Assembly: GCF_000195085.1 (NCBI RefSeq) | Contig: NC_015380.1 | Span: forward strand, 854,001 to 918,000 | Source of the DNA: Candidatus Pelagibacter sp. IMCC9063 | Lineage (GTDB): Bacteria; Pseudomonadota; Alphaproteobacteria; Pelagibacterales; Pelagibacteraceae | Direction of reading: 5' to 3' | Length of the DNA stretch: 64,000 bases | Part shown: positions 1,518-14,121 of the stretch, one piece after another | Position numbering within the stretch: position 1 is the stretch's first letter | How the letters are laid out: each line of letters begins with the position of its first letter | Program-made: the position numbers and the translations under genes | Notes under the pieces: generated by a model | Databases searched by the model: none | Seen by the model: the letters and a program-made list of their open reading frames with translations, nothing else | What the model was told of the DNA's origin: nothing

Positions 1518-1547
1518 ATTCCAATACTCATAATTCTGGGATAGAAT
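1518..1547 (+). promoter_or_regulatory. conserved cassette promoter, copy 1
   Basis: ATTCCA (1518-1523), an 18-bp spacer and TAGAAT (1542-1547) are followed after 6 bp by the ATG at 1554. The spacer shares the ATTCTGGG block with the copies at 3153-3182 and 9142-9171. Because the -10 box sits 6 bp from the start codon, the mRNA is probably leaderless or nearly so. No Shine-Dalgarno is present. Confidence 0.5.
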
Positions 1548-1553
1548 TTAGGG

Positions 1554-2741
1554 ATGAGAAGTATTTTATTGGCGTTAGTTTTGAGTTTGTTGTTGAATGG
1601 AAATGTAACTGCAGAACAATTAAGCAAATCTCCTTTTATACCAGATGATGTTTATGATCAATTCAGTCAATTGTCTAAAGAGCATAAAATTAAATTTTGT
1701 GGCTTTAAAAATTACAAACCAAAAAATAACATAATTAACAAAGATCTCCCTCCAAGAATTTATGGTTACAATTCAAGAATGGATAATGATAAAAATGTAG
1801 AAGGTATTTATGCTAGAGATGTTTTTAGAGCATACTCGCATGCTATTAATTTTGTGATGGTAAATGAAAATGATGAAATAAAAGAAATTCTTTTTAATAA
1901 ACTTTATATATGGGCAAAAAATAAGGCTCTTACTAAAACAAAACAATGTTACAGGAATTCAGCTAAAAATTCTATATTGGAAGAATGCGAAGGAGAATGG
2001 AGTGATCCTGAGGGACAAGATTTAGCGCCGATTAAAGACGCAACAGTTACTTTGGAAATAATTATGGGATTAAATTATATCTACAATCTTAATTTTGCTG
2101 ATTACAAGATTAACGATTCTAGACATAAAGATATTAATGCGTGGTTTAAACCTTTTTACAAAAGAATAAAGCGAGCTAATAAATTTTATTGGGGAAATTC
2201 TGCTGGTTGGTATTTTCCAAATATAGCATTAAGACATAATAGTAATAAAAAATATAAAAGTTTAGTGAAGAAACTGGTAAAAGGTGCTGATAAATGGATT
2301 TTAGAGGATGGAAGCATTAGGGATAGAACTACTCGTGGAGATAGAGCATTATGGTACCATCATACAGGTCTAGGCGAGGCATTCATGATACTAGAAATTG
2401 CTAACGCTGCTAAAGTGAAATTACCTAAAAATTTTGAAAAAAAATTAATTAAAGCTGTGGAGTTATTCCACGACTCATTTTTAGATAATTCAAAAATTGA
2501 GCCTTGGGCAAAGAAACGGCATAATTCGCAAGCTAGCAATAGAGTTCAAAAATTTACTCTTAACTTAGATAGCATTTCATTTAATGGTTCATGGTTTCAT
2601 ATTATGCAGTATAGATACCCAGAACATAGAACTTCAAGGTTTTTAAATAGTCATATGTCAAATCGTTCACAATCTCTTAAAGGTGATGAGGTTACTGGAA
2701 TTGGGATGGGCTGTGTATACAACGCATTAGCAAATCAATGA
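1554..2741 (+). CDS. secreted alginate-lyase-like protein
   Basis: This 395-aa protein has a Sec signal peptide (MRSILLALVLSLLLNGNVTA, cleavage near residue 20). The body is rich in Trp, Tyr and His, like alpha/alpha-toroid polysaccharide lyases. Two segments resemble the alginate lyase (PL5/Alginate_lyase) family: the Asn-Lys-Phe-Tyr-Trp segment near 209-221, and DGSIRDRTTRGDRALWYHH near 250-268, which parallels the DG(T/S)...RG.RAL.YH signature. It may cleave a uronic-acid polysaccharide in the periplasm. Its leader belongs to the repeated cassette. The stop overlaps the next mini-leader in an ATGA. The family assignment rests on motif memory, not a search. Confidence 0.55.
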   Translation: MRSILLALVLSLLLNGNVTAEQLSKSPFIPDDVYDQFSQLSKEHKIKFCGFKNYKPKNNIINKDLPPRIYGYNSRMDNDKNVEGIYARDVFRAYSHAINFVMVNENDEIKEILFNKLYIWAKNKALTKTKQCYRNSAKNSILEECEGEWSDPEGQDLAPIKDATVTLEIIMGLNYIYNLNFADYKINDSRHKDINAWFKPFYKRIKRANKFYWGNSAGWYFPNIALRHNSNKKYKSLVKKLVKGADKWILEDGSIRDRTTRGDRALWYHHTGLGEAFMILEIANAAKVKLPKNFEKKLIKAVELFHDSFLDNSKIEPWAKKRHNSQASNRVQKFTLNLDSISFNGSWFHIMQYRYPEHRTSRFLNSHMSNRSQSLKGDEVTGIGMGCVYNALANQ

Positions 2742-2776
2742 AAAAACTTTTAGAGATCGTGGTTTCAAAAGATTAA
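2738..2776 (+). other. truncated leader mini-ORF (12 aa)
   Basis: ATG overlaps the preceding stop (ATGA) and opens MKKLLEIVVSKD, whose first nine residues copy the island signal peptide (MKKLLGIMV). TAA then abuts the ATG at 2777. It reads as a signal-peptide start that lost its hydrophobic core and now only leads into the next ORF. Confidence 0.5.
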
Positions 2777-3088
2777 ATGGTTTTACTTTGGTCCATTTCA
2801 TTTTTAGTAGTCTTAATTTTTTTAAGTAATTTTTTAACAAATTATTTAAAAAGTCTTGACATAGAAAATGATCACAACAGCCCAGATGCTTTTTGGAAAT
2901 TTACCTATGATCATTATGATAAAAATGAATTTAATAAATCTATTACAAAAGTAAAAGATTCTGATTCAGTAGAAAAGCAAAAAATATTTAAAGACAGATT
3001 GATTATATTATATTGGCTGCTTACAATTTCGATTTTTGTAACTGTTATTTATATTTTAACTTTAGTTTTAAAAATGATATTATTATAA
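2777..3088 (+). CDS. small two-helix membrane protein, unknown
   Basis: This 103-aa protein has one hydrophobic segment at each end (about 3-22 and 78-102) and a charged central domain with many Asp and Lys. The N-terminal helix probably acts as an uncleaved signal anchor. The ATG follows directly on the TAA of a truncated leader mini-ORF and has no Shine-Dalgarno of its own, so translation is likely coupled. No family is recognised. Confidence 0.5.
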   Translation: MVLLWSISFLVVLIFLSNFLTNYLKSLDIENDHNSPDAFWKFTYDHYDKNEFNKSITKVKDSDSVEKQKIFKDRLIILYWLLTISIFVTVIYILTLVLKMILL

Positions 3089-3152
3089 TCAAGAAATCGT
3101 AGCTAATTAATCTTCTCATTACGTTATGTATATAATTATAGCCTATCCATCC

Positions 3153-3182
3153 GTTCCATTGCCCGAGATTCTAGGGTAGAAT
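3153..3182 (+). promoter_or_regulatory. conserved cassette promoter, copy 2
   Basis: GTTCCA (3153-3158), an 18-bp spacer and TAGAAT (3177-3182) lie 7 bp before the ATG at 3190. About 35 bases here match the minus-strand copy at 9136-9171 with only a few differences. This indicates that the upstream region is part of the repeated cassette, not only the coding leader. Confidence 0.55.
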
Positions 3183-3189
3183 TCTGGTT

Positions 3190-3588
3190 ATGAAAAAGCT
3201 TTTAGGGATCATGGTTCTGGGTTTGTTGTTAAGTGGGAACGCTTATGCAGAAATTAACTGGCAGAAAAGAAATTTGTGCGAAAAATCTGAATACAAAGAT
3301 TTATGTTCTATAATTTTAGATAAAAAATTAGTTGGTGTAAATACAATAGCAAATTTTAAATTTGAAAAAGGAAAAATTATTGCACTAATAATTGTTAAAA
3401 AAAGGGAAAATATGAGTTTGCTTCAAGATCCAGATCCAAGTTATGTAGCAAAATATACAGGTGAATATCTTGTTTATAAAAATGCAGATGGGATATTTAT
3501 CACAGAATTTGCACCTTCCTCTCCTATGGAAAATTTAATATGTGATAATTCGAATAAATGTATTAATGCCAACTCAATAAGATCTTAA
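3190..3588 (+). CDS. secreted protein with cassette leader, unknown
   Basis: This 132-aa protein carries the best-preserved copy of the island leader (MKKLLGIMVLGLLLSGNAYA, cleavage after AYA). The mature part of about 112 residues has four Cys (CEKS, DLCS, ICDN, KCIN), consistent with periplasmic disulfides, and a short beta-rich middle section. No family is recognised. The promoter is the cassette copy directly upstream. One base separates its stop from the next truncated leader, so it probably heads a short operon running to 4211. Confidence 0.6.
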   Translation: MKKLLGIMVLGLLLSGNAYAEINWQKRNLCEKSEYKDLCSIILDKKLVGVNTIANFKFEKGKIIALIIVKKRENMSLLQDPDPSYVAKYTGEYLVYKNADGIFITEFAPSSPMENLICDNSNKCINANSIRS

Positions 3589-3589
3589 C

Positions 3590-3628
3590 ATGAAAAAACT
3601 AATTTGCATCATGGTTCTGGGTTTATGA
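3590..3628 (+). other. truncated leader mini-ORF (12 aa)
   Basis: The frame MKKLICIMVLGL stops in the middle of the hydrophobic core at TGA (3626-3628), which overlaps the ATG of the next ORF at 3625. Its first 27 bases nearly match the start of the minus-strand gene at 8378, and the rest matches the leader at 3190. Confidence 0.55.
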
Positions 3629-3750
3629 CACTTGAGATTATTATTATTTCATTAACTATCGTCTTTGCAGTTTATTTTTTATTTAGACCTACCTCTAAAA
3701 AAGAAAAAGACAGGTTTGAAGATAAAGATAACTGGAGGGGTGGGTTTTAA
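3625..3750 (+). CDS. 41-aa single-helix membrane peptide
   Basis: The ATG overlaps the stop of a truncated leader mini-ORF (ATGA). The product has an N-terminal hydrophobic stretch (MTLEIIIISLTIVFAVYFLF) and then a charged tail with Lys, Asp and Arg ending in WRGGF. It is predicted to be a small inner-membrane peptide with a cytoplasmic tail. TAA is followed without a gap by the next mini-leader ATG. The function is unknown. Confidence 0.4.
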   Translation: MTLEIIIISLTIVFAVYFLFRPTSKKEKDRFEDKDNWRGGF

Positions 3751-3795
3751 ATGAAAAAAATCCTAACGTTCCCAATTCTCGGTAGAGTGGATTAG
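3751..3795 (+). other. truncated leader mini-ORF (14 aa), fused to a degenerate promoter block
   Basis: The frame starts MKKIL and then runs into DNA resembling the cassette promoter (GTTCCC at 3768, ATTCTCGG, TAGAGT at 3783). It stops with TAG three bases before the ATG at 3799. It looks like a recombination joint between one leader start and the upstream block of another copy. Confidence 0.45.
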
Positions 3796-3798
3796 AAA

Positions 3799-4167
3799 AT
3801 GTATGAAATAGCTGCAAATTTAATATTATTGGTTCATTTTATATTTATTCTCTTTGTTGTATTTGGTGCCTTATTATTTTTTGCTTCAGCAAAGATTATT
3901 TTGATACATACGCCTGCTTTTATTTGGGGGTGCTATATCGAATTCACTAATTCTATATGTCCTCTGACTTATCTTGAAAATTGGTTTTTACATAAAGCTA
4001 ATCTAACAACATATTCTGTAGGTTTTATTCAAAATTACTTAGTGCCGATTGTTTATCCGGTGAGTCTTACGAAAGATTTACAAACATACCTAGGAATAGC
4101 CCTAATAGTCATAAATGTAGTTTTTTATGCCTTTATATTTAATAAATTGAAAAAAAATTTTAAATGA
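3799..4167 (+). CDS. DUF2784 membrane protein
   Basis: This 122-aa protein has four predicted membrane helices. It matches the DUF2784 pattern: an N-terminal LILLVHFIFILFVVFGALL helix, then HTPAFIWGCYIEF with the ICPLTYLEN motif, then a Y..GFI.NYL.P.VYP segment and a C-terminal helix. The biochemical role of the family is unknown. It is preceded by a mini-leader and a degenerate cassette promoter, and its TGA overlaps the next leader relic (ATGA). It is likely acquired and inserted into the leader-cassette array. Confidence 0.75.
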   Translation: MYEIAANLILLVHFIFILFVVFGALLFFASAKIILIHTPAFIWGCYIEFTNSICPLTYLENWFLHKANLTTYSVGFIQNYLVPIVYPVSLTKDLQTYLGIALIVINVVFYAFIFNKLKKNFK

Positions 4168-4211
4168 AAAAGATTTTAGGTATAGCGTTTCTGGTTTTGT
4201 TGTTGTGCTAG
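4164..4211 (+). pseudogene. decayed leader relic (15 aa then stop)
   Basis: The ATG overlaps the DUF2784 stop. The frame MKKILGIAFLVLLLC ends at TAG, but the DNA beyond the stop (AATGCTTATGCAAAAATT) still matches the end of the consensus leader (NAYA plus the start of a mature protein). A small change in the AGTGGG segment appears to have created the stop. No intact mature domain follows, so this secreted-protein gene is dead. Confidence 0.55.
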
Positions 4212-4391
4212 AATGCTTATGCAAAAATTGATTGAAAATACATCAAAAACGATACATCTTTAGATTTAAGGTAAGCAAACGACGAAATTTAACATCGATA
4301 TCTTCTTTAATATTTTAGCAAAACATGACCGCTCTACTATTGTATTCAATTAACCTTAATTTGGTTTAATTAATGCGATATTTAAAGCTTA

Positions 4392-4541
4392 TTAAGCCTT
4401 TTTTGTTTTAGGGACGATCTTTGTGTGATTGGAGTTTTTGTTTTTTTTATTACAACATTCTTTTAAAACTTTAACTGCAGCCATACCACCTAAAAAAGTT
4501 AAACCGAGTACCTTAAGCCCAATTAAAGTTTTAATTATCAT
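4392..4541 (-). CDS. possible 49-aa small membrane-associated protein
   Basis: The minus strand from ATG at 4541 reads MIIKTLIGLKVLGLTFLGGM and continues with AAVKVLKECCNKKNKN to a Lys-rich tail ending at TAA (4392). The N-terminus is hydrophobic with a GG and a CC pair, and the tail is basic. It is the only plausible gene in the 4212-4676 gap. No homologue is recognised and no clear ribosome binding site is seen. Confidence 0.35.
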   Translation of the reverse strand: MIIKTLIGLKVLGLTFLGGMAAVKVLKECCNKKNKNSNHTKIVPKTKKA

Positions 4542-4676
4542 TATTATTAATTATCACAGATTTTTTATTCAAGAAATAGTTTTAAACTTAATCAATCCAA
4601 GAAGTGAGACACTATTGCAAAAAAAATAAATGCAATTATCTTTAAAATACAACTAAGAGCATATATCTAGATCGTC

Positions 4677-5387
4677 ATGACAAATAAATATCTTATTTTT
4701 GGAGCAACAGGTTCCATTGGTTCCAGTTTAGCTAAAATGCTTAAGCAATCTGATTTTGATATTCATCTTGTCGCCAGACAAGAAGATTTGGTATCACAAC
4801 TTGCTAATGAATTAGGTTGTAGTTTCACCGTAGCTGATGTTTTAGAAGAAAATTTTATTGAAAAGGTAAAAGCTGATGCGCCTGATATCAAAGGGCTAGC
4901 TTATTGCGTAGGTTCTATAGATTTAAAGCCACTTAAAATGGTTAAAGAACAGGATTTACAAAAATGTATGAAGCTTAATCTGTACTCTGCGGTGGAAATT
5001 ATAAAAGCTTATCATGATAGTTTAAAACAAAACAAAGGTTCAATTGTATTATTTTCAACAGTTGCTGCTCAAAGAGGATTTACAAATCATGCAATTATCG
5101 CTTCTGCTAAAGCTGCCGTGGAAGGATTAACAGTTTCTCTAGCGTCTGAATTTGCACCTGATATTCGTGTCAATTGTATTGCACCCAGCTTAAGCTACTC
5201 AAAAATTGCCGAACCTATGCTTAAAAATAAACCTTTAGCGGATGGTATCGCAAAAGCTCACCCACTTAAAAGATTGGGTGAGGGAAAAGATTCAGCAGCC
5301 TTAGCTAAATTTTTACTGAGTGAAGAAAGTTCTTGGATGACGGGACAAATTATTGGTGTCGACGGCGGACGATCTAAGCTTTCTTAA
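4677..5387 (+). CDS. short-chain dehydrogenase/reductase-like protein without catalytic Tyr
   Basis: This 236-aa protein has the full SDR Rossmann fold: GATGSIG at 9-15, Asp54 after the third strand, an N-terminal NLYSA helix near 101, the serine strand LFSTVAA (Ser127), the IRVNCIAPS strand near 163-171, and the GVDGG end. The classical YxxxK motif reads Ile141-A-S-A-Lys145, so the catalytic tyrosine is missing while serine and lysine remain. I recall a subgroup with an IAxAK motif in marine proteobacteria. It may bind NAD(P) without classical alcohol oxidation. It is a single gene next to the convergent alternative oxidase. Confidence 0.8.
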   Translation: MTNKYLIFGATGSIGSSLAKMLKQSDFDIHLVARQEDLVSQLANELGCSFTVADVLEENFIEKVKADAPDIKGLAYCVGSIDLKPLKMVKEQDLQKCMKLNLYSAVEIIKAYHDSLKQNKGSIVLFSTVAAQRGFTNHAIIASAKAAVEGLTVSLASEFAPDIRVNCIAPSLSYSKIAEPMLKNKPLADGIAKAHPLKRLGEGKDSAALAKFLLSEESSWMTGQIIGVDGGRSKLS

Positions 5388-5423
5388 ATATATAAATTCA
5401 ATTTAAAAAATTAATATTCTTTA

Positions 5424-6077
5424 CTAATTTGTTTTTTTTAAATTTGTTTGTTGTTCTTCGTTAGGATCTAATTTGTTGTTTAAAATATTTGCATATGAAT
5501 GATTAACATCTCTATGACCCGCTTCATCTTCTCTAACTCTTACGACCACATCTCTTAAAGTCGCGTGAAGTGGAAGGCTATAGTAATCAATGGCAATTTT
5601 AGGAGCAGGTTCATTTTTCATTTTACCGCTATCAAGTTCGTCTAAGAACTCAGTATAACTATAAACTGCTTCTTCTTCAAAATAACCAACAATTCGGTGC
5701 GCCGTTCTTTTTGAAATAATATAAATAAATAAATACATTAGAATAAAAATGAATTGCGCTATTAAAATGATAACTCGTTCCATGGCCGTTGGTTTTGCAA
5801 TGTTGACGAAAATCATTAGATGCATTCTTTCATTTTCAGCTTCATCTAAAAGGGTCTTAATCCAACCCTTATCATCTTCAATTTTTCTAATGGACTTTAA
5901 ATGCGTTAACATTCCAGCTATCATACCAGGAACTGCTGCCACTGTTTCCAGTACCACAGCACGATGCCCATATTTTTTTTTAAAGAAGGTATCTGCAACA
6001 AACCTTAAAAATTTGGTAAATCCAAATGCAATACGATCACTAATATTTTCAGGTTTATGGTGACTGTCTAATTTCAT
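5424..6077 (-). CDS. aox: alternative oxidase (ubiquinol oxidase, di-iron)
   Basis: This 217-aa protein shows all the di-iron ligand motifs of the alternative oxidase family: LET (Glu44), NERMH (Glu83, His86), EEEA (134-137) and REDEAGHRDVNH (Glu185, His188). Two hydrophobic stretches (about 45-60 and 100-121) fit its monotopic inner-membrane attachment. The enzyme oxidises ubiquinol and reduces oxygen to water without pumping protons, bypassing the cytochrome bc1 complex. The window also encodes complex I, which would feed it ubiquinol. It lacks the plant N-terminal regulatory extension, as bacterial forms do. Confidence 0.93.
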   Translation of the reverse strand: MKLDSHHKPENISDRIAFGFTKFLRFVADTFFKKKYGHRAVVLETVAAVPGMIAGMLTHLKSIRKIEDDKGWIKTLLDEAENERMHLMIFVNIAKPTAMERVIILIAQFIFILMYLFIYIISKRTAHRIVGYFEEEAVYSYTEFLDELDSGKMKNEPAPKIAIDYYSLPLHATLRDVVVRVREDEAGHRDVNHSYANILNNKLDPNEEQQTNLKKTN

Positions 6078-6082
6078 AAAAT

Positions 6083-6214
6083 TTATATAGTAAATCTTAA
6101 TAAATTTTCTTCTGCAATTTTATCATCTATGCTCTTTGCCATCATTGGGCATGAACCTGCATAAGCAGAACTTGTGAAAAGTACTAAGAATAATGTAATT
6201 ACTATTTTTTTCAT
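6083..6214 (-). CDS. small secreted peptide, unknown
   Basis: Starting at ATG 6214, the product is 43 aa with a signal peptide (MKKIVITLFLVLFTSSAYA) and a mature part of about 24 residues beginning GSCPMMAKSIDDKIAEE. The longer frame adds an unlikely N-terminal tail, so I chose the internal ATG. The SCPM..K.ID motif recalls short secreted proteins of marine alphaproteobacteria, but this copy is shorter than I would expect and may be truncated. The stop is five bases from the oxidase start, so the two are probably co-transcribed. Confidence 0.5.
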   Translation of the reverse strand: MKKIVITLFLVLFTSSAYAGSCPMMAKSIDDKIAEENLLRFTI

Positions 6215-6381
6215 TAATAACCAAATAATAGGAAAATAATTAGTTTTTACTATAACCAATATTGTCACTTTGCATGTGCAAAATGACCCAACTATTTCTT
6301 GTATAAATTTACTGTGCGCATAAAGCCTATAATCATTTAATAAAAATCCTGTATTATGATTATTATTAATGATTGAAATTT

Positions 6382-6798
6382 ATGATTGAAAAATTTAATG
6401 GAATTTTTTATTTAGTATTATTTGTAGTACATTTCTTAGGTGTTGGAGCTTATGCTTATCAACTGATTATTGGAAACCAAAAATTTAGAGATAAATTTCA
6501 AATAAATGAAACTGCTACAGCAACCCTGAGAATGATTGGCGCTATGTTTTTAGGTACTTTCCTGATGGCAATGTATATCATGTTTGTAAGACCCAATGGC
6601 GTTCAGGATACATGGGCATTTTTCAATTTAGTTTTTGTTCAAAATTTGTGCATTTTTATTGTTAATACTTATTCGATTAAGATTGATAAGACCGGTGTAA
6701 AATCACCATCAAATGAAGCTGTAGTTGCACCATTAATCTTTACAATCATTAGTGCAGTTCTCTGTTATGGGTTGGCTGATAAAATTTATATTTACTAA
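6382..6798 (+). CDS. four-helix membrane protein, unknown
   Basis: The ATG at 6382 gives 138 aa. An in-frame TTG at 6373 is less likely. Four hydrophobic segments are spread over the length (about 5-25, 45-65, 75-95 and 115-135) with a short basic loop near 28-40. No conserved motif was recognised. It is divergent from the 6083-6214 peptide, so the interval 6215-6381 should hold two promoters. Confidence 0.6.
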   Translation: MIEKFNGIFYLVLFVVHFLGVGAYAYQLIIGNQKFRDKFQINETATATLRMIGAMFLGTFLMAMYIMFVRPNGVQDTWAFFNLVFVQNLCIFIVNTYSIKIDKTGVKSPSNEAVVAPLIFTIISAVLCYGLADKIYIY

Positions 6799-6820
6799 AC
6801 TTTTGAAGGCAATGATAAGA

Positions 6821-7285
6821 ATGAAACATATACTATACAAAGTAATTGTGATTACCTTGTTTGCTTCATCAATATCTTATGCTGAGTTAATAGAACCTAA
6901 TGATGGAATTGAACCTTCTCAAGTTATCAAAATTCAATTGAGAAGTTTAAAGCAGAACAATAAACCTAATAAAGACAATGGGATTGAACAGACCTGGAAA
7001 TTTGCCCATCCAAACAATCAAAAATACACAGGTCCTTTAGACCGATTTAAAACTATGATTAAAGGAAAGTCTTACGAAATGTTGCTCAACCATTTAGACC
7101 ATAATATTACAATGGTTCAATCTAATGATTTAATAGTGAATTTTGAAGTAACGGTTCTTGATAAAAACAAAACCTACTATAAATTTAATTGGACAGTTGA
7201 AAAATATAGAGAAGAGGGACCACTTAAAGACTGCTGGTTAACTACTATAGTGTCAGCTCCAAAATCTCTAGGATCATCAATTTAA
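6821..7285 (+). CDS. secreted DUF4864-like protein
   Basis: From ATG 6821 the 154-aa product has a signal peptide (MKHILYKVIVITLFASSISYA). The mature part matches the DUF4864 pattern: I..QL.SL....N....WKFAHPNNQKYTGPLDRFKTMIKGKSYEMLLNH. The fold is NTF2-like in related families and the function is unknown. ATG 6812 is an alternative start. The gene follows the membrane protein ending at 6798 by 22 bases and may be in the same transcript. Confidence 0.6.
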   Translation: MKHILYKVIVITLFASSISYAELIEPNDGIEPSQVIKIQLRSLKQNNKPNKDNGIEQTWKFAHPNNQKYTGPLDRFKTMIKGKSYEMLLNHLDHNITMVQSNDLIVNFEVTVLDKNKTYYKFNWTVEKYREEGPLKDCWLTTIVSAPKSLGSSI

Positions 7286-7347
7286 ATAATCCCCATTTAA
7301 AAGCCCATCTAAAATCCTATCTTCAACAGCCCAATAAATTTCCAATA

Positions 7348-7388
7348 CCTACACAAAACCTACACAAAACCTACACAAAACCTACACA
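7348..7388. repeat. short tandem repeat, 11-bp unit x 3.7
   Basis: The unit CCTACACAAAA is repeated three times (7348-7380), followed by a partial fourth (CCTACACA, 7381-7388). On the minus strand each unit contains TAG, and the repeat forms the 3' end of the 51-aa ORF at 7371-7526. It is too short and has no spacers, so it is not a CRISPR. Strand slippage is the likely origin. Confidence 0.85.
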
Positions 7389-7526
7389 GATTGTTCTCTG
7401 GGATCTCTCTGGACTTCTAAAAGATGCGCAACTCATCGTCTTAACGTTAGCTTTTTTTAAAATATAAAAGTCATAAATCGCGACACTTAAAATAGTCAAC
7501 GTTGATATCCAAGCGGCGGTGTTCAT
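7371..7526 (-). CDS. small membrane protein (51 aa)
   Basis: The ATG at 7526 overlaps the upstream stop (ATGA) and is preceded by GAGAAGAGAG. The N-terminal half MNTAAWISTLTILSVAIYDF forms one membrane helix followed by YILKKAN. The last 20 residues run into the 11-bp tandem repeat and look unrelated to the N-terminal part, so the 3' end is probably altered. Small proteins of this NTAAWISTLTIL type occur in marine bacteria as far as I recall. The role is unknown. Confidence 0.5.
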   Translation of the reverse strand: MNTAAWISTLTILSVAIYDFYILKKANVKTMSCASFRSPERSQRTICVGFV

Positions 7527-7687
7527 TTTTTATTTTTCTCTCTTCTCCATAATATATAAAATAATAATATGAGAGCTGGCTGTAAGATTACAAAAATAAC
7601 AATATTAGCCAATTCATAGCCCATCCCTGTTACATCACCTATAACCTCAAGAACCCAGACACACCAGTTGAAAAAATCATGAATCAT
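7523..7687 (-). CDS. small membrane protein (54 aa)
   Basis: The minus frame from ATG 7687 reads MIHDFFNWCVWVLEVIGDVT and then GMGYELANIVIFVILQPALI, ending in a basic tail WRREKNKK. It contains one strong C-terminal membrane helix and a Trp-rich amphipathic N-terminus. It overlaps the next gene by ATGA and lies 13 bases after the gene at 7701, so it belongs to a five-gene minus-strand operon starting at 9135. Its role is unknown. Confidence 0.55.
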   Translation of the reverse strand: MIHDFFNWCVWVLEVIGDVTGMGYELANIVIFVILQPALILLFYILWRREKNKK

Positions 7688-7700
7688 GGAGGTTATTTTT

Positions 7701-8378
7701 TCATATAAAGTATTTTAATGAGTTTCCAATAGCTGACAATATTAGTATCACAGTAGTAACCTTTGCTGTAGTAGCCCAGCTATAAAGCTCGCCTGCTTTA
7801 ATTTTTTTAGCTTTATAAATATCTGCAGAATTAAACACTCCCATGACTGCAAGTACATTCCAAATAATAAGCAAAATATAAATTAACAAAATAATTATTT
7901 TATTGGGCAAAAACAAAGTGGTTAAAATGTTAAAAAAAATATTTCCAAAAATAAAAAAACCCCAAAAAGAAGCGGCTAAACTTTTATTACCATGCCAGAA
8001 ATTTTTAAACGTGTGTTTGCGATTAATTTTTCCTAGATTAAAAGTATTTTTTTTTAATCTCATTTTTAGACTCCGTTTTCTTTTATTTTTAAACAATCCC
8101 ACTAGAGGAATTGCAAAAACTAATGCAAAACCCATAATACCGTAAATAAAATTAGTCCTTGTTTCCTTATCTCGTATTTGTTTAATTTCTTTACTGGTGA
8201 ATTTGCACTCTCTTTCAGGCAAAACTATATGAAAATATTCAGATTGTGAATTAACCCAACGCGAATGAACTTTACCTTCATAGCATTCAAGATTTTTTAC
8301 CATACCACCTTTGTGTTCGGCACTAGCCACTGCACCAAATAAACAACTTAGAACGATGATGCAAATTAGTTTTTTCAT
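7701..8378 (-). CDS. membrane protein with cassette-type signal peptide, unknown
   Basis: This 225-aa protein begins with a signal peptide (MKKLICIIVLSCLFGAVASA). The first 27 bases are almost identical to the truncated leader at 3590. A periplasmic part of about 50 residues with two Cys is followed by a membrane helix near 78-95, a very basic loop (KRKRSLKMRLKK), a Trp-rich segment (FWHGNKSLAASFWGFFIF) and two or three more helices. It overlaps its upstream gene by ATGA. No known family was recognised. Confidence 0.6.
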   Translation of the reverse strand: MKKLICIIVLSCLFGAVASAEHKGGMVKNLECYEGKVHSRWVNSQSEYFHIVLPERECKFTSKEIKQIRDKETRTNFIYGIMGFALVFAIPLVGLFKNKRKRSLKMRLKKNTFNLGKINRKHTFKNFWHGNKSLAASFWGFFIFGNIFFNILTTLFLPNKIIILLIYILLIIWNVLAVMGVFNSADIYKAKKIKAGELYSWATTAKVTTVILILSAIGNSLKYFI

Positions 8379-8821
8379 TTATTAATGGCCCGTACAATTC
8401 CATTGCATATTTTTAGATCACCACCAATATAGTTATTCATCATATATATCCCTGTTTTAGCAAAAGATTCGTTTCCATCTTTTTCTAGATACTTCATCAT
8501 ATTATCTATGTCAGTCTTAAGACTCTTTGCTGTAACCTCTTCAGTCCAATTCATTTTTTTCATTAAGATTTTTGCAGCAAAATTAAACGTTATTCGAAAC
8601 GCTTTTAAAAGATTTTCTGGATTAGAAGAGTCTTTAGTTATTGAAGTAGCATATATATATGCTGCGGAGCATCTTTTTAAAACGTAGGTAAAAGTTATAG
8701 GATCACTAGCGTAATTATCATTTTCTTGAATATATTTTTTTAAAGCTATCATTGATTGAGAATAAGCATTCCCACCCAACAACAAACCCAGAACCACGAT
8801 CAAAGAGAAGAGTTTTTTCAT
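8375..8821 (-). CDS. secreted protein with cassette leader, unknown
   Basis: ATG 8821 gives 148 aa; an upstream in-frame TTG at 8827 is rejected because the ATGA overlap with the previous stop is the pattern of this operon. The signal peptide is MKKLFSLIVVLGLLLGGNAY with SQ at cleavage. The mature part is alpha-helical with two Cys (KRCSAA, KICNGI) that could form a disulfide. It shares the GLLLGGNAY leader block with the genes at 3190 and 9135. The function is unknown. Confidence 0.6.
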   Translation of the reverse strand: MKKLFSLIVVLGLLLGGNAYSQSMIALKKYIQENDNYASDPITFTYVLKRCSAAYIYATSITKDSSNPENLLKAFRITFNFAAKILMKKMNWTEEVTAKSLKTDIDNMMKYLEKDGNESFAKTGIYMMNNYIGGDLKICNGIVRAINK

Positions 8822-9135
8822 TTCCAATTACTATCGCATCCTATCATCCAAGCATTAGTTGGATACTTTCTTAGCATTTCTGCAGTATTAGAATATTCGT
8901 CTATAAAATCCTGACAATCATCTACTTCTTTAGCTTTAAATTTTCCACCTAAATAAAATTTGTATTTACTAGGTCCCCCTTCCATACATGGATCTCCTGT
9001 TCTTCCAAGGTCAGGGTTATTCAAAACTCCTTCCTGATAATTGCACAAATATGCTTTTACATCTTTCTTAAAAAAAGCATAAGCATTCCCACTCAACAAC
9101 AGTGCTAATACCAATCCCAACACAATCCTCTTCAT
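8818..9135 (-). CDS. small secreted Cys-rich protein with cassette leader
   Basis: This 105-aa protein has the signal peptide MKRIVLGLVLALLLSGNAYA. The mature part of 85 residues has four Cys (YLCNY, DPCME, DDCQD, IGCDS), likely two disulfide bonds, and a Gly-rich centre. It is the first gene of a minus-strand operon in which each of the next two starts overlaps the preceding stop in ATGA. The promoter is a clear cassette copy directly upstream. No family is known to me. Confidence 0.6.
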   Translation of the reverse strand: MKRIVLGLVLALLLSGNAYAFFKKDVKAYLCNYQEGVLNNPDLGRTGDPCMEGGPSKYKFYLGGKFKAKEVDDCQDFIDEYSNTAEMLRKYPTNAWMIGCDSNWK

Positions 9136-9171
9136 CTTCGAATTCTACTCCAGAATCATGGGCAATGGAAC
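9136..9171 (-). promoter_or_regulatory. conserved cassette promoter, copy 3 (minus strand)
   Basis: On the minus strand GTTCCA (9171-9166), an 18-bp spacer and TAGAAT (9147-9142) lie 6 bp before the ATG at 9135. The spacer (TTGCCCATGATTCTGGAG) differs from the plus-strand copy at 3159-3176 at only a few positions. The arrangement again predicts a leaderless mRNA. Confidence 0.55.
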
Positions 9172-9217: not shown

Positions 9218-12200
9218 GTGAGAAAGATATCAGAATCAAAAAGTTGGAAAGAATTAAACAATCATTTAGCTTCTCTAACTACCTCGCAAAAATCTAAAGC
9301 AGGTGGAGATATATTTGAACACGTTTGTAAGTATTATTTACAAACAGCACCTCACTACCAGTCCAAGCTAAAAAAGGTTTGGCTCTTAAAAGAAATTAAA
9401 GAAGATTTAAAAAGAAAACTTAATCTCCCCGATACCGATGAAGGTATCGATTTAATTGCAGAGACTTATGATAAAAAATATTGGGCGATCCAATCTAAAT
9501 ACAGATCCAATCCTAAAGACACCCTTACGATTAAAGGGGATCTAGCAACCTTTGCTAATTTAGCTTTTAACAACTGTAAACACATAAGTCATGGTTTAGT
9601 TCTAACGACTTCTGATAAACCACCACTTAAAACCAAACTATTAAGGGGAGTTGGTTTTGAAACGTTAGAAAGCTTTGTTGGTTTAGATGATAATGATGGT
9701 GAAGGTTGGAAAGCTATTACTGCTAAAGCCAAAGGTAAAACCATTAAACCAAAAGCCCTAACTCCAAGACCCCATCAAGCAGAAGCTATTAAAAAGAGTT
9801 TCGAACACTTTAAAAACAATGAACGTGGCAAAATGATTATGCCCTGTGGTACGGGTAAAAGTTTAGCTGCATTTTGGATTGCAAGAAAAGTAAATGCTAA
9901 ATCTATTTTAATTGCTGTTCCTTCATTAGCGCTTCTTCAACAAACGTTAAAAGTATGGACTAGAGAATATTTAATAGCAGGTGTTAGACCTGATTGGTTA
10001 TGCGTTTGTAGTGATCAAACGGTAAGTGATGATCAAGATGATTTTGTCAGCAACATTTATGATTTAGGAATCGATGTCACTACGGACAAGAATGATATTA
10101 AAAAGTTTCTTCAAAAAAAGAACAGTAACTTAAAGATAGTATTTACCACCTATCAATCAGGAAAAGTCACCGCTCAAGGAGCTAAAGGATTTAAGTTTGA
10201 TCTTGGAATTATGGATGAGGCTCATAAAACAGTAGGGCATGGTGAAAAAGCAATGGCTCATTTAATTCATCAAAAGAACATCAAGATTAAGAACCGTTTG
10301 TTTATGACGGCAACCGAGAGATTATTTAGAGGCGATAAAGATGAATACTTATCCATGGATGATCCAAGAGATTATGGAGAGATCATCTATCAATTAAGCT
10401 TTAAAGCTGCGATCGAAATGAAGCCACCTATCATTTCAGATTATAAGATTATTACTTTCGGGATCACGGCTCCTGAAATTGAAGCGGTTTATAGTAGTAA
10501 TAAATTCATCCAAGTTAAAAAAGAAATCGATAATATTACTGCCAGAGAATTTGCAATAGCCATAGCTCTTCGAAAGGCAATAAAGAAACTTAAAATAAGT
10601 AATGCTATTTCTTTTCACAGCTCCATCAAAAGAGCCAATAACTTTAAAAAACAACAAGAGCTTATCTCTAAAGTTTATAAACAATACGGAAAAATCAAAA
10701 CATTCCACGTAAGTGGTGCAATGGCAACCAGCCAACGTACATCACAAATGAGAGAGTTTGCGGAAGGCAAAGGTTTAATGACCAATGCTAGATGTTTAAC
10801 GGAAGGGGTGGATTTACCAGCGATCGATTGTGTTGTGTTCACGGATCCCAAAAGATCCAAAGTAGATATAGTGCAAGCGGCAGGAAGAGCTTTGCGATTA
10901 TCTAAAAGTAAAAAGTTTGGTTATATTCTTATACCCATTCTTATTTCAGAAGATGAAAATGCCACTGAAGCTGCAAAGGACACAGCCTTTGAAGATATCG
11001 TAGCAACGATTAGAGCATTAGCTACACAAGATACCAGGATCACTGATTATTTAAGAGCGGTCAGCAGTGGAACTATTCCAAGAGGCAAAGGAAGTCCAGT
11101 TGATGGCTTGACAAAACTTAATGTCCTAACAAAAGTTAATGAAGAAGAGTTTAATAAATCCATCCAACTAAAGGTCTGGGACCGTGTAGCTTTTGGTAAT
11201 TGGAGACCTTATGAAGAAGCTAAAAAATATGTTCAATCTTTAAAGTTAAAAAATTCCACACAATGGAGAGCCCATATTAAACTAAAAAATTTTCCAAAGG
11301 ACATTCCACAAAGCCCAAATGAAGTCATTGTATACAAAAAAGAATGGGAAAGCTGGGGTGTATTTTTAGGAACAGGAAATGTTGCTTCACAACTAATACA
11401 ATATAGAGATTACAAAGAAGCAAAAAAATACGCTCAATCTTTAAATCTTAAGAGCGGAAGAGAATGGGTAGCCCATACTAAATCTAAAAATTTTCCTAAA
11501 GATATCAAGGTTGCCCCTCATTCATATGAAGAATTTGAAAGTATGGGTATATTTTTAGGAACAGGAATTGTTGCTAACAGGTTAAGAAAATACAAAAAAT
11601 ACAAAGAAGTTAAAAAATATGCTCAATCTTTAAAATTAAAAAGTGCTAAACAATGGACTGATCATTGTAAATCAAAAAATTTCCCAGAAGATATTCCAGT
11701 AAAAGTTTGGGATATTTACAAAAATGAATACCAAGGTATGGGAGATTTTCTAGGTACAGAAAATACTTCTTGGAGATATAAAAATTACAAATCGTACAAA
11801 GAAGTTAAAAAATACGCTCAATCTTTAAATCTTAAGAGCAGAAGAGAATGGAAAGCCCATATTAAATCTAAAAATTTTCCTAAAGATATCCCTTTATACC
11901 CAGATAATCTCAAAACGTATAAAAAAAAATGGGAAAACTGGGGTGTATTTTTAGGCACAGGAAATACTTCTTTGAAACATAAAAAGTACAAATCGTACAA
12001 AGAAGCTAAAAAATATGCTCAATCTTTAAATCTTAAGAACAGAAATGAATGGATAGCCCATGCTAAATCTAAAAATTTTCCTAAAGATATCAAGCGTGCC
12101 ATTTGGCTTGATGAAGAGTTTGAAAGTATGGGTGTATTTTTGGGAACAGGAACTGTTGCTAACCATTTAAAAGAATTTAGAAGTTTCAAGAAAGTTAAAA

Positions 12201-12358
12201 AATATGCTCAATCTTTAAAATTAAAAAGTGCTAAACAATGGACTGATCATTGTAAATCAAAAAATTTTCCAGAAGATATTCCGAGAAATCCAGACGCTTC
12301 TTACAAATATAAAAAAGAATGGAAAGGCTGGGACGATTTTCTGGGTAAGAAGAAATGA
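9218..12358 (+). CDS. Mrr-like nuclease/SF2 helicase fusion with six C-terminal repeats
   Basis: This 1046-aa protein has three parts. Residues 25-150 look like a PD-(D/E)xK (Mrr-type) nuclease: FEHVCK (Glu34), GIDLIA (Asp78), AIQSK (Gln92, Lys94). Residues 180-640 form an SF2 helicase with Walker A PCGTGKS (209-215), DEAH (333-336), TATE (364-367) and QAAGRALR (553-560). Residues 665-1046 are six repeats of 63-67 aa (YKEAKKYAQSLNLKS..EW, KSKNFPKDI, WGVFLGTG). The nuclease-helicase half resembles the N-terminus of type ISP restriction enzymes, but no methyltransferase is present. The repeat resembles the W-GW-FLGTG integrase-type repeats of algae and giant viruses. A role in anti-phage defence or mobile-element biology is inference. 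GTG 9218 is the start. Confidence 0.8.
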   Translation: MRKISESKSWKELNNHLASLTTSQKSKAGGDIFEHVCKYYLQTAPHYQSKLKKVWLLKEIKEDLKRKLNLPDTDEGIDLIAETYDKKYWAIQSKYRSNPKDTLTIKGDLATFANLAFNNCKHISHGLVLTTSDKPPLKTKLLRGVGFETLESFVGLDDNDGEGWKAITAKAKGKTIKPKALTPRPHQAEAIKKSFEHFKNNERGKMIMPCGTGKSLAAFWIARKVNAKSILIAVPSLALLQQTLKVWTREYLIAGVRPDWLCVCSDQTVSDDQDDFVSNIYDLGIDVTTDKNDIKKFLQKKNSNLKIVFTTYQSGKVTAQGAKGFKFDLGIMDEAHKTVGHGEKAMAHLIHQKNIKIKNRLFMTATERLFRGDKDEYLSMDDPRDYGEIIYQLSFKAAIEMKPPIISDYKIITFGITAPEIEAVYSSNKFIQVKKEIDNITAREFAIAIALRKAIKKLKISNAISFHSSIKRANNFKKQQELISKVYKQYGKIKTFHVSGAMATSQRTSQMREFAEGKGLMTNARCLTEGVDLPAIDCVVFTDPKRSKVDIVQAAGRALRLSKSKKFGYILIPILISEDENATEAAKDTAFEDIVATIRALATQDTRITDYLRAVSSGTIPRGKGSPVDGLTKLNVLTKVNEEEFNKSIQLKVWDRVAFGNWRPYEEAKKYVQSLKLKNSTQWRAHIKLKNFPKDIPQSPNEVIVYKKEWESWGVFLGTGNVASQLIQYRDYKEAKKYAQSLNLKSGREWVAHTKSKNFPKDIKVAPHSYEEFESMGIFLGTGIVANRLRKYKKYKEVKKYAQSLKLKSAKQWTDHCKSKNFPEDIPVKVWDIYKNEYQGMGDFLGTENTSWRYKNYKSYKEVKKYAQSLNLKSRREWKAHIKSKNFPKDIPLYPDNLKTYKKKWENWGVFLGTGNTSLKHKKYKSYKEAKKYAQSLNLKNRNEWIAHAKSKNFPKDIKRAIWLDEEFESMGVFLGTGTVANHLKEFRSFKKVKKYAQSLKLKSAKQWTDHCKSKNFPEDIPRNPDASYKYKKEWKGWDDFLGKKK
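11210..12340 (+). repeat. six in-frame coding repeats, a duplicated three-unit block
   Basis: Units begin at about 11210, 11411, 11600, 11795, 11996 and 12185. The spacings are 201, 189, 195, 201 and 189 bp, so units 1-3 and 4-6 are offset by exactly 585 bp. Units 3 and 6 are almost identical over 90 bases. Units 2 and 5 share EEFESMG in place of the Lys-Trp-Trp-Gly segment of units 1 and 4. This shows a recent block duplication without frameshift. Confidence 0.9.
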
Positions 12359-13896: not shown

Positions 13897-13971
13897 TATT
13901 AAGTGAGGTTTTTTAGGCTTTTATGCAACCTATGGGCGGTTGTTTAGTTTGATTATTGCTTTAATTAGAGT

Positions 13972-14121
13972 GTTTTACGGGAGAGACTATTTAAATATAG
14001 CGCTGAAGGATCAACTGCTCAGGAAAATCTCAAGCAAAAGGACCGTAAAAATTAAAACTCTGGAAAGAGAGCTTAAGTGCTCCACCGAAGGATTAAGATC
14101 TCAGGTATTCAAGACAGATGA
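13972..14121 (+). promoter_or_regulatory. tandem glycine riboswitch upstream of gcvT
   Basis: Two glycine aptamers lie in series. The first (13972-14050) is closed by GTTTTACGG / CCGTAAAA and contains GGGAGAGA, GCGCTGAAGGATCAA, CTCAGG and AAAAGGAC. The second (about 14056-14121) contains CTCTGGAAAGAG, CCACCGAAGGA, ATCTCAGGTA and GACAGATGAG. A short linker joins them, as in the classic two-aptamer form. It ends 15 bases before the gcvT ATG and no terminator hairpin intervenes, so glycine probably controls translation start. A 66-codon frame across it is spurious. Confidence 0.9.

What the first reader, a model, noticed from the sequence alone, without database searches (positions are those of the whole stretch)
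1518..9171. Portable promoter plus signal-peptide cassette repeated through an accessory island
Near-identical leaders occur at 1554, 3190, 8821(-) and 9135(-), with related starts at 2738, 3590, 3751, 4164 and 8378(-). In at least three copies the similarity extends about 35 bases upstream into a promoter with constant geometry: (G/A)TTCCA, 18 bp, TAGAAT, 6-7 bp, ATG. The mature proteins attached are unrelated. The DNA looks like a modular expression-and-secretion cassette spread by recombination, so that new mature domains gain ready-made expression and export. Recurrent leaders in SAR11 may be known informally, but the shared promoter and the shuffling are, as far as I know, not described.
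Basis: partly seen in the sequence, partly recalled or inferred. Interest (0 to 1): 0.75.

Follow-up and report, generated by a model that had tools for sequence, protein, structure and literature searches.

The report
SAR11 gene cassettes sharing one leader
Across SAR11, the ocean's most abundant bacteria, dozens of unrelated genes, mostly for secreted-type proteins, begin with nearly the same 40-letter DNA sequence, and genes appear to be swapped between genomes at that sequence, which would be an undescribed way for very small genomes to exchange single genes.

Summary
In the window the three promoter blocks are exact (3 found, 0.02 expected) and the leaders are related, but not near-identical (62-67% DNA identity among the three promoter-bearing copies). 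Across SAR11 there is a 40-bp core, ATGAAAAAACTTTTAGGGATCGTGGTTCTGGGTTTGTTGT, starting sharply at the ATG. A model of it matches 77 of 142 near-complete family genomes and, of 398 genomes drawn from the phylum, only the own one. Rare codons, in copies not selected by DNA, show that it is conserved as DNA. Complete core-led ORFs fall into 93 protein families; stubs of the core also precede other genes. Similarity between genomes mostly stops at cores: 555 of 562 alignments break there, 80 of 111 at other starts in the islands, 823 of 2,599 elsewhere. Some core-to-core cassettes are shared at 92-99% DNA identity; window 1575-2764 is one (93.7%), ending inside two cores. Upstream blocks are modular too, in 14 further classes, and head copies mostly have leaderless geometry. 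Many arrays lie near tRNA genes or fragments. Best explanation: gene cassettes exchanged by homologous recombination at a coding leader. Ten searches of an open-access library showed no description of it.

The parts
1518..1547 (+). Promoter-like block ATTCCA-18-TAGAAT; 6 bp to ATG (leaderless geometry)
1554..1616 (+). Diverged leader (27 of 40 core bases) of the alginate-lyase-like gene
   Evidence: also matched by R1, which was built with it
1554..2741 (+). Gene g1554, 395 aa, Pfam Alginate_lyase (E 5.1e-7)
1575..2764 (+). Exchanged cassette: 93.7% DNA identity to L123 over 1,190 bp; homology ends at +21 of this leader and +26 of the next core
   Evidence: GcvP of the same two genomes 69% DNA, 66% aa
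2738..2764 (+). Stub core (26 of 27 bases) overlapping the stop of g1554; the next gene does not use it
2777..3088 (+). Hydrophobic ORF, 103 aa, no Pfam match, behind the stub
3153..3182 (+). Promoter-like block GTTCCA-18-TAGAAT; 7 bp to ATG
3190..3229 (+). Best-preserved core copy of the window (38 of 40; profile E 3.7e-15)
3190..3588 (+). Secreted-type ORF, 132 aa; an 80% aa identical relative in L159 stands behind a DUF3764 gene beside tRNA-Thr
3590..3626 (+). Stub core (E 0.0035)
3799..4167 (+). DUF2784 gene; its 79% aa identical relative in L128 has a stub core before it and a full core after it; in the window the remnant before it (3751) is weak
4164..4226 (+). Full-length leader broken by an in-frame TAG; no gene uses it
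9142..9171 (-). Promoter-like block GTTCCA-18-TAGAAT; 6 bp to ATG
8818..9135 (-). Leader-bearing ORF, 105 aa (22 of 40 core bases); a 79% aa identical relative in L144 is followed by a core and a different gene
8375..8821 (-). Core-led ORF, 148 aa; its ATG overlaps the previous stop (ATGA)
7701..8378 (-). ORF of 225 aa with a weak leader copy (28 of 40; profile E 0.069)

Best explanation
The repeated element is a 40-bp coding core (ATG plus the beginning of a signal peptide) that serves as the joint of gene cassettes in SAR11 accessory islands. SHOWN: it is conserved as DNA in six genera; it starts at the ATG, often at or overlapping the stop codon of the gene before; neighbouring cores mostly delimit single genes; homology between genomes usually ends at cores; some whole core-to-core cassettes are shared between divergent genomes; one upstream class or anchor gene is joined through the same core to different genes. 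INFERRED: exchange is by ordinary (RecA-type) homologous recombination between cores of incoming and resident DNA, because crossovers seem to fall at different places in the core and the copies tested have no fold; a dedicated recombinase was sought with one integrase only. A gene that arrives with a core would receive a start codon, transcription (a leaderless promoter at the head of an array, or read-through with start/stop overlap inside it) and, if in frame, export. Repeated exchange would keep cores alike; where it is rarer, as perhaps in this window, they decay into ordinary signal peptides or stubs. Many arrays sit near tRNA genes and tRNA fragments, so integrases of mobile elements may deliver them, and recombination at cores then reassort genes.
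For: Core profile with sharp 5' edge: 249 copies; same in 86 copies without the fetch 23-mer. DNA-level, in 40 full-length copies without the fetch 23-mer: CTG 28 of 38 Leu (background 2.0%), GGG 28 of 34 Gly (6.7%), ATC 35 of 38 Ile (8.4%), GTG 19 of 23 Val (7.7%); in 25 leaders from loci fetched by a protein profile: 12 of 24, 13 of 16, 19 of 22, 13 of 16. Breakpoints: 127 of 127 informative core starts have a break; wider test, breaks 555 of 562 alignments at cores, 80 of 111 at other starts in islands, 823 of 2,599 elsewhere; per start P 4e-4 and 4e-36. Single-contig genomes only: 61 of 62 break at 14 cores, 94 of 251 at 68 other starts. Pairs with one flank alike: 19 share only the gene side, 34 only the upstream side (21 of them from one anchor gene), 2 both. 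Core-to-core cassettes, e.g. L160/L072 1,266 bp at 98.8%. One anchor gene plus core before seven different genes in seven genomes. Window cassette. Crossover bounds from <9 to >36. 71 of 101 intervals between neighbouring cores are one ORF. 176 proteins, 93 families. tRNA link.
Against: Loci were fetched by the core, so the sample is not random, and alignments are not independent. Other starts inside islands also break often (80 of 111 alignments; only 23 informative starts), so much of the signal is that islands are fluid. Most loci are single-cell or metagenome assemblies, in which 40-60 bp repeats could cause mis-joins; single-contig genomes agree but give few cases. No exchange was seen in progress and no recombination gene was tested. 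Crossover bounds assume that differences in the core predate the exchange. Four other near-complete genomes of the window's genus had no match to the core model, and the window's island has no tRNA gene within about 19 kb on either side.
Confidence: 0.7

Rival explanations
1. The core is kept by selection on the nucleotide sequence itself (a translation-start or RNA element: leaderless 5' end, ribosome loading, target of a small RNA or RNA-binding protein), and the breakpoints only reflect how fluid the islands are.
For: Synonymous sites are far from free. TRNNNT hexamers end 6 or 7 bases before the ATG 58 times among 85 head copies (a copy may count twice), against 21 times among 162 internal ones, so the core is the predicted mRNA 5' end of many heads. 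26 stubs have another ORF starting within 200 nt, where they could act by reinitiation.
Against: In the window the leaders at 1554 and 9135 keep only 27 and 22 of 40 core bases yet still read as signal-peptide-like. 20 short copies have no ORF of 50 aa starting in the next 200 nt. Other starts in the same islands break less. Core-to-core transfer is not explained by selection alone. Single-strand DNA folding of two copies gives nothing (RNA folding was not run).
Confidence: 0.2
2. The core is the site of a dedicated, unidentified recombinase or of a mobile element that inserts at start codons (integron-like).
For: Arrays of mostly one-gene units with a constant joint and sometimes an orphan joint; many arrays near tRNA genes; one element with a phage-type integrase carries a core-led gene.
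Against: Crossover bounds differ from case to case, from before +9 to after +36. Two copies tested have no fold. One integrase used as query had a relative in only 1 of 110 loci; other recombinase families were not searched.
Confidence: 0.12
3. Artefact: single-cell assemblies mis-join at 40-60 bp repeats, giving false junctions.
For: Most loci with many copies are single-cell genomes by their titles.
Against: The window's genome is one contig and its cassette 1575-2764 ends inside two cores. In single-contig genomes (G000, G003, G017, G026, G035; G077 had no profile hit) 61 of 62 alignments break at cores, against 94 of 251 at other starts; three of the 14 cores alone (L206 two, L210 one) give 47 of the 61. 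A shared cassette with different flanks on both sides needs two mis-joins.
Confidence: 0.05
4. An ordinary gene family: paralogues of one ancestral secreted protein whose mature parts diverged.
For: Shared leader.
Against: 93 families by BLAST among 176 proteins, with Pfam matches as different as trypsin-like peptidase, polysaccharide lyase, cytochrome c, thioredoxin, LolA-like and autotransporter; cassettes 92-99% identical with unrelated flanks.
Confidence: 0.02

Closest known systems
Replacement and additive flexible genomic islands exchanged by homologous recombination in aquatic bacteria (Lopez-Perez 2014, PMC4033161, passages seen; Wilhelm 2007, PMC2217521, passages seen)
   Same: Accessory genes exchanged by homologous recombination through conserved DNA, proposed for SAR11 HVR2 with rRNA genes as anchors
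   Different: There whole gene clusters are exchanged through flanking sequence; here single genes through a 40-bp coding repeat inside the island
Integron gene cassettes (recalled)
   Same: Arrays of one-gene units separated by a constant element
   Different: The joint is coding sequence at the 5' end of the gene, two copies tested have no fold, and crossovers show no single point; an integron integrase was not searched for
Polymorphic toxins and Rhs/CDI carboxy-terminal exchange (PMC3482391, listing and start of abstract seen; details recalled)
   Same: A constant start joined by recombination to unrelated ends
   Different: The constant part is a 13-codon leader and the variable parts are whole proteins, several of them enzyme-like
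tRNA-bounded cargo islands: tycheposons and additive islands with repeated tRNA ends (PMC10872708, passages seen), VEIMEs and other hitcher elements (PMC11389934, passages seen)
   Same: tRNA genes, partial tRNA copies and cargo; L168 has a phage-type integrase and a primase-like protein
   Different: Here tRNA-bounded segments can be only 1-3 kb, and the one integrase type sought was beside 1 of 110 loci; a shared leader is not mentioned in the passages seen
Mobile promoters and mycoplasma surface-protein families with a constant promoter and signal peptide (recalled)
   Same: Promoter and leader reused with different mature parts
   Different: Here cargo is unrelated in sequence and shared across genera, and there are many upstream classes

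Membership tests
Integron gene cassettes | attC-type recombination site that folds as single strand | tested here: not met
   Two copies, both strands, fold no better than shuffles (z 0.74 to 0.86)
Integron gene cassettes | Fixed crossover point | tested here: not met
   Bounds from before +9 to after +36, if core differences predate exchange
Integron gene cassettes | Integron integrase near the array | not tested
   Only one phage-type integrase was used as query; 1 of 110 loci matched
Exchange by homologous recombination at shared sequence | Similarity ends inside the shared sequence, flanks unrelated | tested here: met
Exchange by homologous recombination at shared sequence | Dependence on RecA | not testable with these tools
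   needs a genetic experiment
   Its block groups only with itself at 60% identity; 14 other classes exist
   codon test on copies not selected by the DNA pattern
Leaderless promoters | -10 box 6-7 bp before the start codon | tested here: met
   58 hexamer ends among 85 heads, 21 among 162 internal copies; transcription starts not measured
Sec signal peptides | Lys-rich n-region, hydrophobic h-region, A-x-A-like end | tested here: inconclusive
   Read by eye from translations; no predictor was run
tRNA-integrated islands | Full tRNA at one side and a partial copy at the other | tested here: inconclusive
   Met for examples such as L206 and L211: partial copies in 43 of 111 loci; not met for the window's own island
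Tycheposons, VEIMEs | Own integrase and replication or packaging genes | tested here: inconclusive
   Seen in L168 (Phage_integrase, primase-like AAA); not searched systematically elsewhere

The most novel reading that the evidence does not exclude
SAR11 bacteria share a clade-wide economy of single-gene cassettes: a 40-bp coding sequence is at once recombination joint, translation start (often of leaderless mRNAs) and export signal, so a gene acquiring it is expressed and secreted at once, delivered by small tRNA-bounded elements. Heads of arrays often carry 8-bp direct repeats 11 bp apart whose words differ from cassette to cassette while the two halves agree, which would be a set of distinct operators or integrase arm sites.
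Probability: 0.3. Interest if true: 0.9.

Novelty: new variant of a known kind. Interest (0 to 1): 0.75.

Why it matters
SAR11 genomes are extremely streamlined, and the four island and SAR11 papers whose passages were seen treat exchange of whole islands through flanking sequence. A coding repeat that lets single genes be swapped and at once expressed and exported would give a concrete, testable route, would make sense of many hypothetical secreted proteins, and offers a search tag (the 40-bp core) for SAR11 accessory genes in metagenomes. The leaderless heads with paired repeats would give a first handle on regulation of these genes.

Tried and rejected
Ordinary paralogue family: rejected, 93 mature families. 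Protein-only conservation: rejected by codon use. My first codon test (CTG 149 of 169, GGG 122 of 131, ATC 160 of 167, GTG 135 of 142) was inflated, because most copies came from a fetch by an exact 23-mer covering codons 7-13; the figures I rely on come from copies without that 23-mer and from loci fetched by a protein profile. A promoter shared by all copies: rejected, pooled upstream positions carry at most 0.3 bits. attC-like fold: not found in two copies. Carriage on deposited phages: no match covering 80% of the core in 50,697 phage records, 5 weak ones at E 2-7; one IMG/VR contig has the exact 23-mer. Spread beyond SAR11: model R1 hit only the own genome among 398 genomes of the phylum, with strict filters that lose weak matches and at least one other SAR11 genome without a hit among them; of 110 genome stretches with the exact 23-mer, 106 titles name Pelagibacteraceae/-ales or Pelagibacter, three are the single cell AAA288-N07 titled 'Alpha proteobacterium', and one (L094) says only 'Proteobacteria bacterium'. 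Direct repeats at 11 bp as a private mark of cassette heads: weakened, since other gene starts in the same loci show them too, less often (32 of 157, shuffled mean 11.6, maximum 21, with a smaller excess also at 13 bp, 18 against 9.3; heads 39 of 87, shuffled mean 3.2). Yardsticks for divergence: tsf and nuo DNA and tsf protein mostly found nothing in the partial single-cell genomes; GcvP worked for two of four. A recombinase was sought with one integrase only. Ten paper searches (mostly only listings seen) and passages of six papers showed no description of the shared leader; 'signal peptide' occurs in none of the five searched for it. Most subscription journals are missing from that library.

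Caveats on my own counts: the head/internal split uses an open frame of at least 40 codons ending -20 to +2 of the ATG as a proxy. In one search one window gene (g6822) was translated in a wrong frame and is not used. The classes list one copy twice (L002 is window 3190). Models A1 and R1 were built with window copies included. The breakpoint tests used 207 or 206 cores of the 110 stretches L058-L167, only those far enough from contig ends. One search lists only alignment ends near cores; run-through was counted afterwards. The 136 kb without partial tRNA copies holds few tRNA genes, so it is a weak control.


Full report
What is in the window. The window is 854001-918000 of a single-contig genome of 1,284,727 bp; from its size I recall it as Ca. 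Pelagibacter sp. IMCC9063, which no call names. The leaders are related but not near-identical (62-67% DNA identity between the three promoter-bearing copies). Against the family core described below, 3190 keeps 38 of 40 bases and the others 22-33. Two of the 'related starts' (2738, 3590) are stubs; 4164 is a full leader broken by TAG that no gene uses; 8378 is weak (E 0.069) and 3751 was found by none of three profile searches.

The family-wide element. A DNA pattern of the leader matched 16 of 297 family genomes in 6 of 14 genera, with no match to the reversed control. The exact 23-mer GATCGTGGTTCTGGGTTTRTTGT occurs in 110 stretches of a collection of 84,980 species genomes; 106 titles name Pelagibacteraceae/-ales or Pelagibacter, three are the single cell AAA288-N07, and one is titled 'Proteobacteria bacterium'. 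A profile made from leaders in these loci, none of them from the own genome, gave 294 hits, 249 after removal of duplicates. Conservation begins sharply at the ATG and falls off after position 40; the rest of the signal peptide varies (LLSGNAYAE, LWCNVGIAE, CCGTANAK and others). 86 copies that lack the fetch 23-mer show the same profile, somewhat weaker after +28. Codons that are rare in these genomes dominate: in 40 full-length copies without the 23-mer, CTG 28 of 38 Leu (background 2.0%), GGG 28 of 34 Gly (6.7%), ATC 35 of 38 Ile (8.4%), GTG 19 of 23 Val (7.7%); in 25 leaders from loci fetched by a protein profile, 12 of 24, 13 of 16, 19 of 22 and 13 of 16. A sequence-only model found the core in 77 of 142 near-complete family genomes, 6 of 8 genera, one to six matches each; four other genomes of the window's genus had none. 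Of 398 genomes drawn from the phylum only the own genome matched, with strict filters.

Anatomy. 135 of 249 copies start within -8 to +2 of the stop of an upstream open frame of at least 40 codons, most often as ATGA (51). Of 101 intervals between neighbouring same-strand cores, 71 are filled to 80% or more by one ORF, and in 64 of these the ORF starts at the core. Of 74 short copies, 26 still open an ORF of 60 aa or more, 26 have another ORF starting within 200 nt, 20 have none and 2 run off the locus. L128 shows the pattern best: eight copies in 8 kb, before a hydrolase-like gene, a transporter-like gene, a DUF2784-like membrane gene and others (the first two names are by eye). The 176 complete core-led ORFs form 93 families, 68 of them singletons; 28 Pfam families matched among the 93 representatives, including polysaccharide and alginate lyases, trypsin-like peptidase, cytochrome c, thioredoxin, LolA-like and autotransporter domains.

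Exchange at the core. Among alignments of at least 150 bp between the 110 loci, 127 of 127 informative core starts (of 207) show a break and 7 alignments run through. With a wider zone that treats cores and controls alike, breaks are 555 of 562 at cores, 80 of 111 at other ORF starts inside the islands and 823 of 2,599 elsewhere; all alignments break at 112 of 119 cores, 15 of 23 island starts and 94 of 309 others. Of core pairs with one flank at least 88% identical, 19 share only the gene and 34 only the upstream side; 2 share both. 21 of the 34 come from one 104-aa gene (DUF3764), which with the same core precedes seven different genes in seven genomes. Some complete core-to-core cassettes are shared: L160/L072 1,266 bp at 98.8%, L126/L107 882 bp at 98.1%, L164/L128 952 bp at 96.8%; the 26 rows include reciprocals and run down to 70% identity.

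The window takes part. Window 1575-2764 matches L123 at 93.7% over 1,190 bp, from +21 of the leader at 1554 to +26 of the stub at 2738, although GcvP of the two genomes is 69% identical in DNA and 66% in protein. The relative of g3190 in L159 stands behind the DUF3764 gene; the relative of g8818 in L144 is followed by a core and a different gene; g3799 has a relative in L128 with a stub core before and a full core after it.

How the exchange works. Where one flank is at least 97% identical, differences within the core bound the crossover, if they predate the exchange: it lies after +36 in one pair and before +9 in two others. A single fixed site is therefore unlikely. Two copies have no DNA fold, and the one integrase used as a query has a relative in 1 of 110 loci. 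This favours homologous recombination; RecA dependence is inferred. Mis-assembly is a real concern for single-cell genomes, but in single-contig genomes 61 of 62 alignments break at 14 cores, against 94 of 251 at 68 other starts, although three cores give 47 of the 61.

Upstream blocks. Anchored at the ATG, 15 classes of upstream sequence share at least 60% identity over 60 bp (null maximum 53% in 4,000 shuffles); one class is the window's own. In every pair but the one that is the same copy listed twice, the sequence behind the leader is less than 50% identical. A TRNNNT hexamer ends 6 or 7 bases before the ATG 58 times among 85 heads, against 21 among 162 internal copies, so heads are probably leaderless. 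39 of 87 heads carry an 8-bp direct repeat at 11-bp spacing (shuffled mean 3.2, maximum 6); 12 bp (10) and 15 bp (7) are slightly above chance, the other spacings from 8 to 16 are not; internal copies show 16 of 162 against 9.2, and other gene starts 32 of 157 against 11.6. The repeat words differ between heads while their halves agree; I do not know why.

tRNA link. 51 of 117 loci have a core within 2.5 kb of a tRNA gene, mostly Thr(tgt) 24, Leu(taa) 11 and Met(cat) 10. 43 of 111 loci hold 61 partial tRNA copies (43 three-prime, 18 five-prime), median 588 bp from a core, against none in 136 kb of comparison sequence, which includes the window but few tRNA genes. Single-contig genomes show it too (L206, L209, L211). 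One IMG/VR contig, L168, combines a core-led MORN gene with a phage integrase and a primase-like protein. The window's island is not next to a tRNA gene.

Known or new. Passages of SAR11 and island papers describe exchange of whole islands through flanking sequence; passages concern hitcher elements and tRNA-bounded islands. Ten paper searches gave no listing on a shared leader, and a search for the peptide strings gave no paper. I file it as a new variant of a known kind, recombinational gene exchange with a constant joint. The mended codon figures and the new single-contig count do not change my odds.

Noticed in passing
L206:6218-6259, L211:3687-3737 and 5020-5067, and 43 of 111 loci: Partial tRNA copies (mostly tRNA-Thr 3' halves and tRNA-Leu 5' halves) near core arrays, suggesting tandem 1-3 kb islands at tRNA genes.
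   Followed up: partly
Upstream of head cores in many loci, e.g. L083 (-) 2373, L118 6558, L124 (-) 2107: 8-bp direct repeats exactly 11 bp apart whose words differ between cassettes while both halves agree: candidate operators or integrase arm sites.
   Followed up: partly
L168 (IMG/VR contig, 9,737 bp): Element with phage integrase, primase-like AAA protein and a core-led MORN-repeat gene; its first bases look like part of a tRNA-Met by eye.
   Followed up: partly
L211:3828-4418 and 4415-4915: Two neighbouring pilin-like genes share an almost identical N-terminus, lying between two tRNA-Thr fragments: possibly another constant-start family.
   Followed up: no
L062, L104, L129, L140, L145, L019 (e.g. 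L129:3774+): A recurring stub: core followed by about AAATATCATCCTATAGATTATGGG and then a direct-repeat block; 200-212 bp from tRNA-Leu in the five loci that were scanned for tRNAs (L019 was not).
   Followed up: no
window 9218-12358: ORF with restriction-type nuclease and helicase domains (Mrr_cat_2, ResIII) and, by eye, a C-terminus with several repeats of about 65 aa (KKYAQSLKLKS..W..H), next to the island.
   Followed up: no
window 13968-14055: Glycine riboswitch upstream of a gcvT-like gene (named by eye).
   Followed up: no
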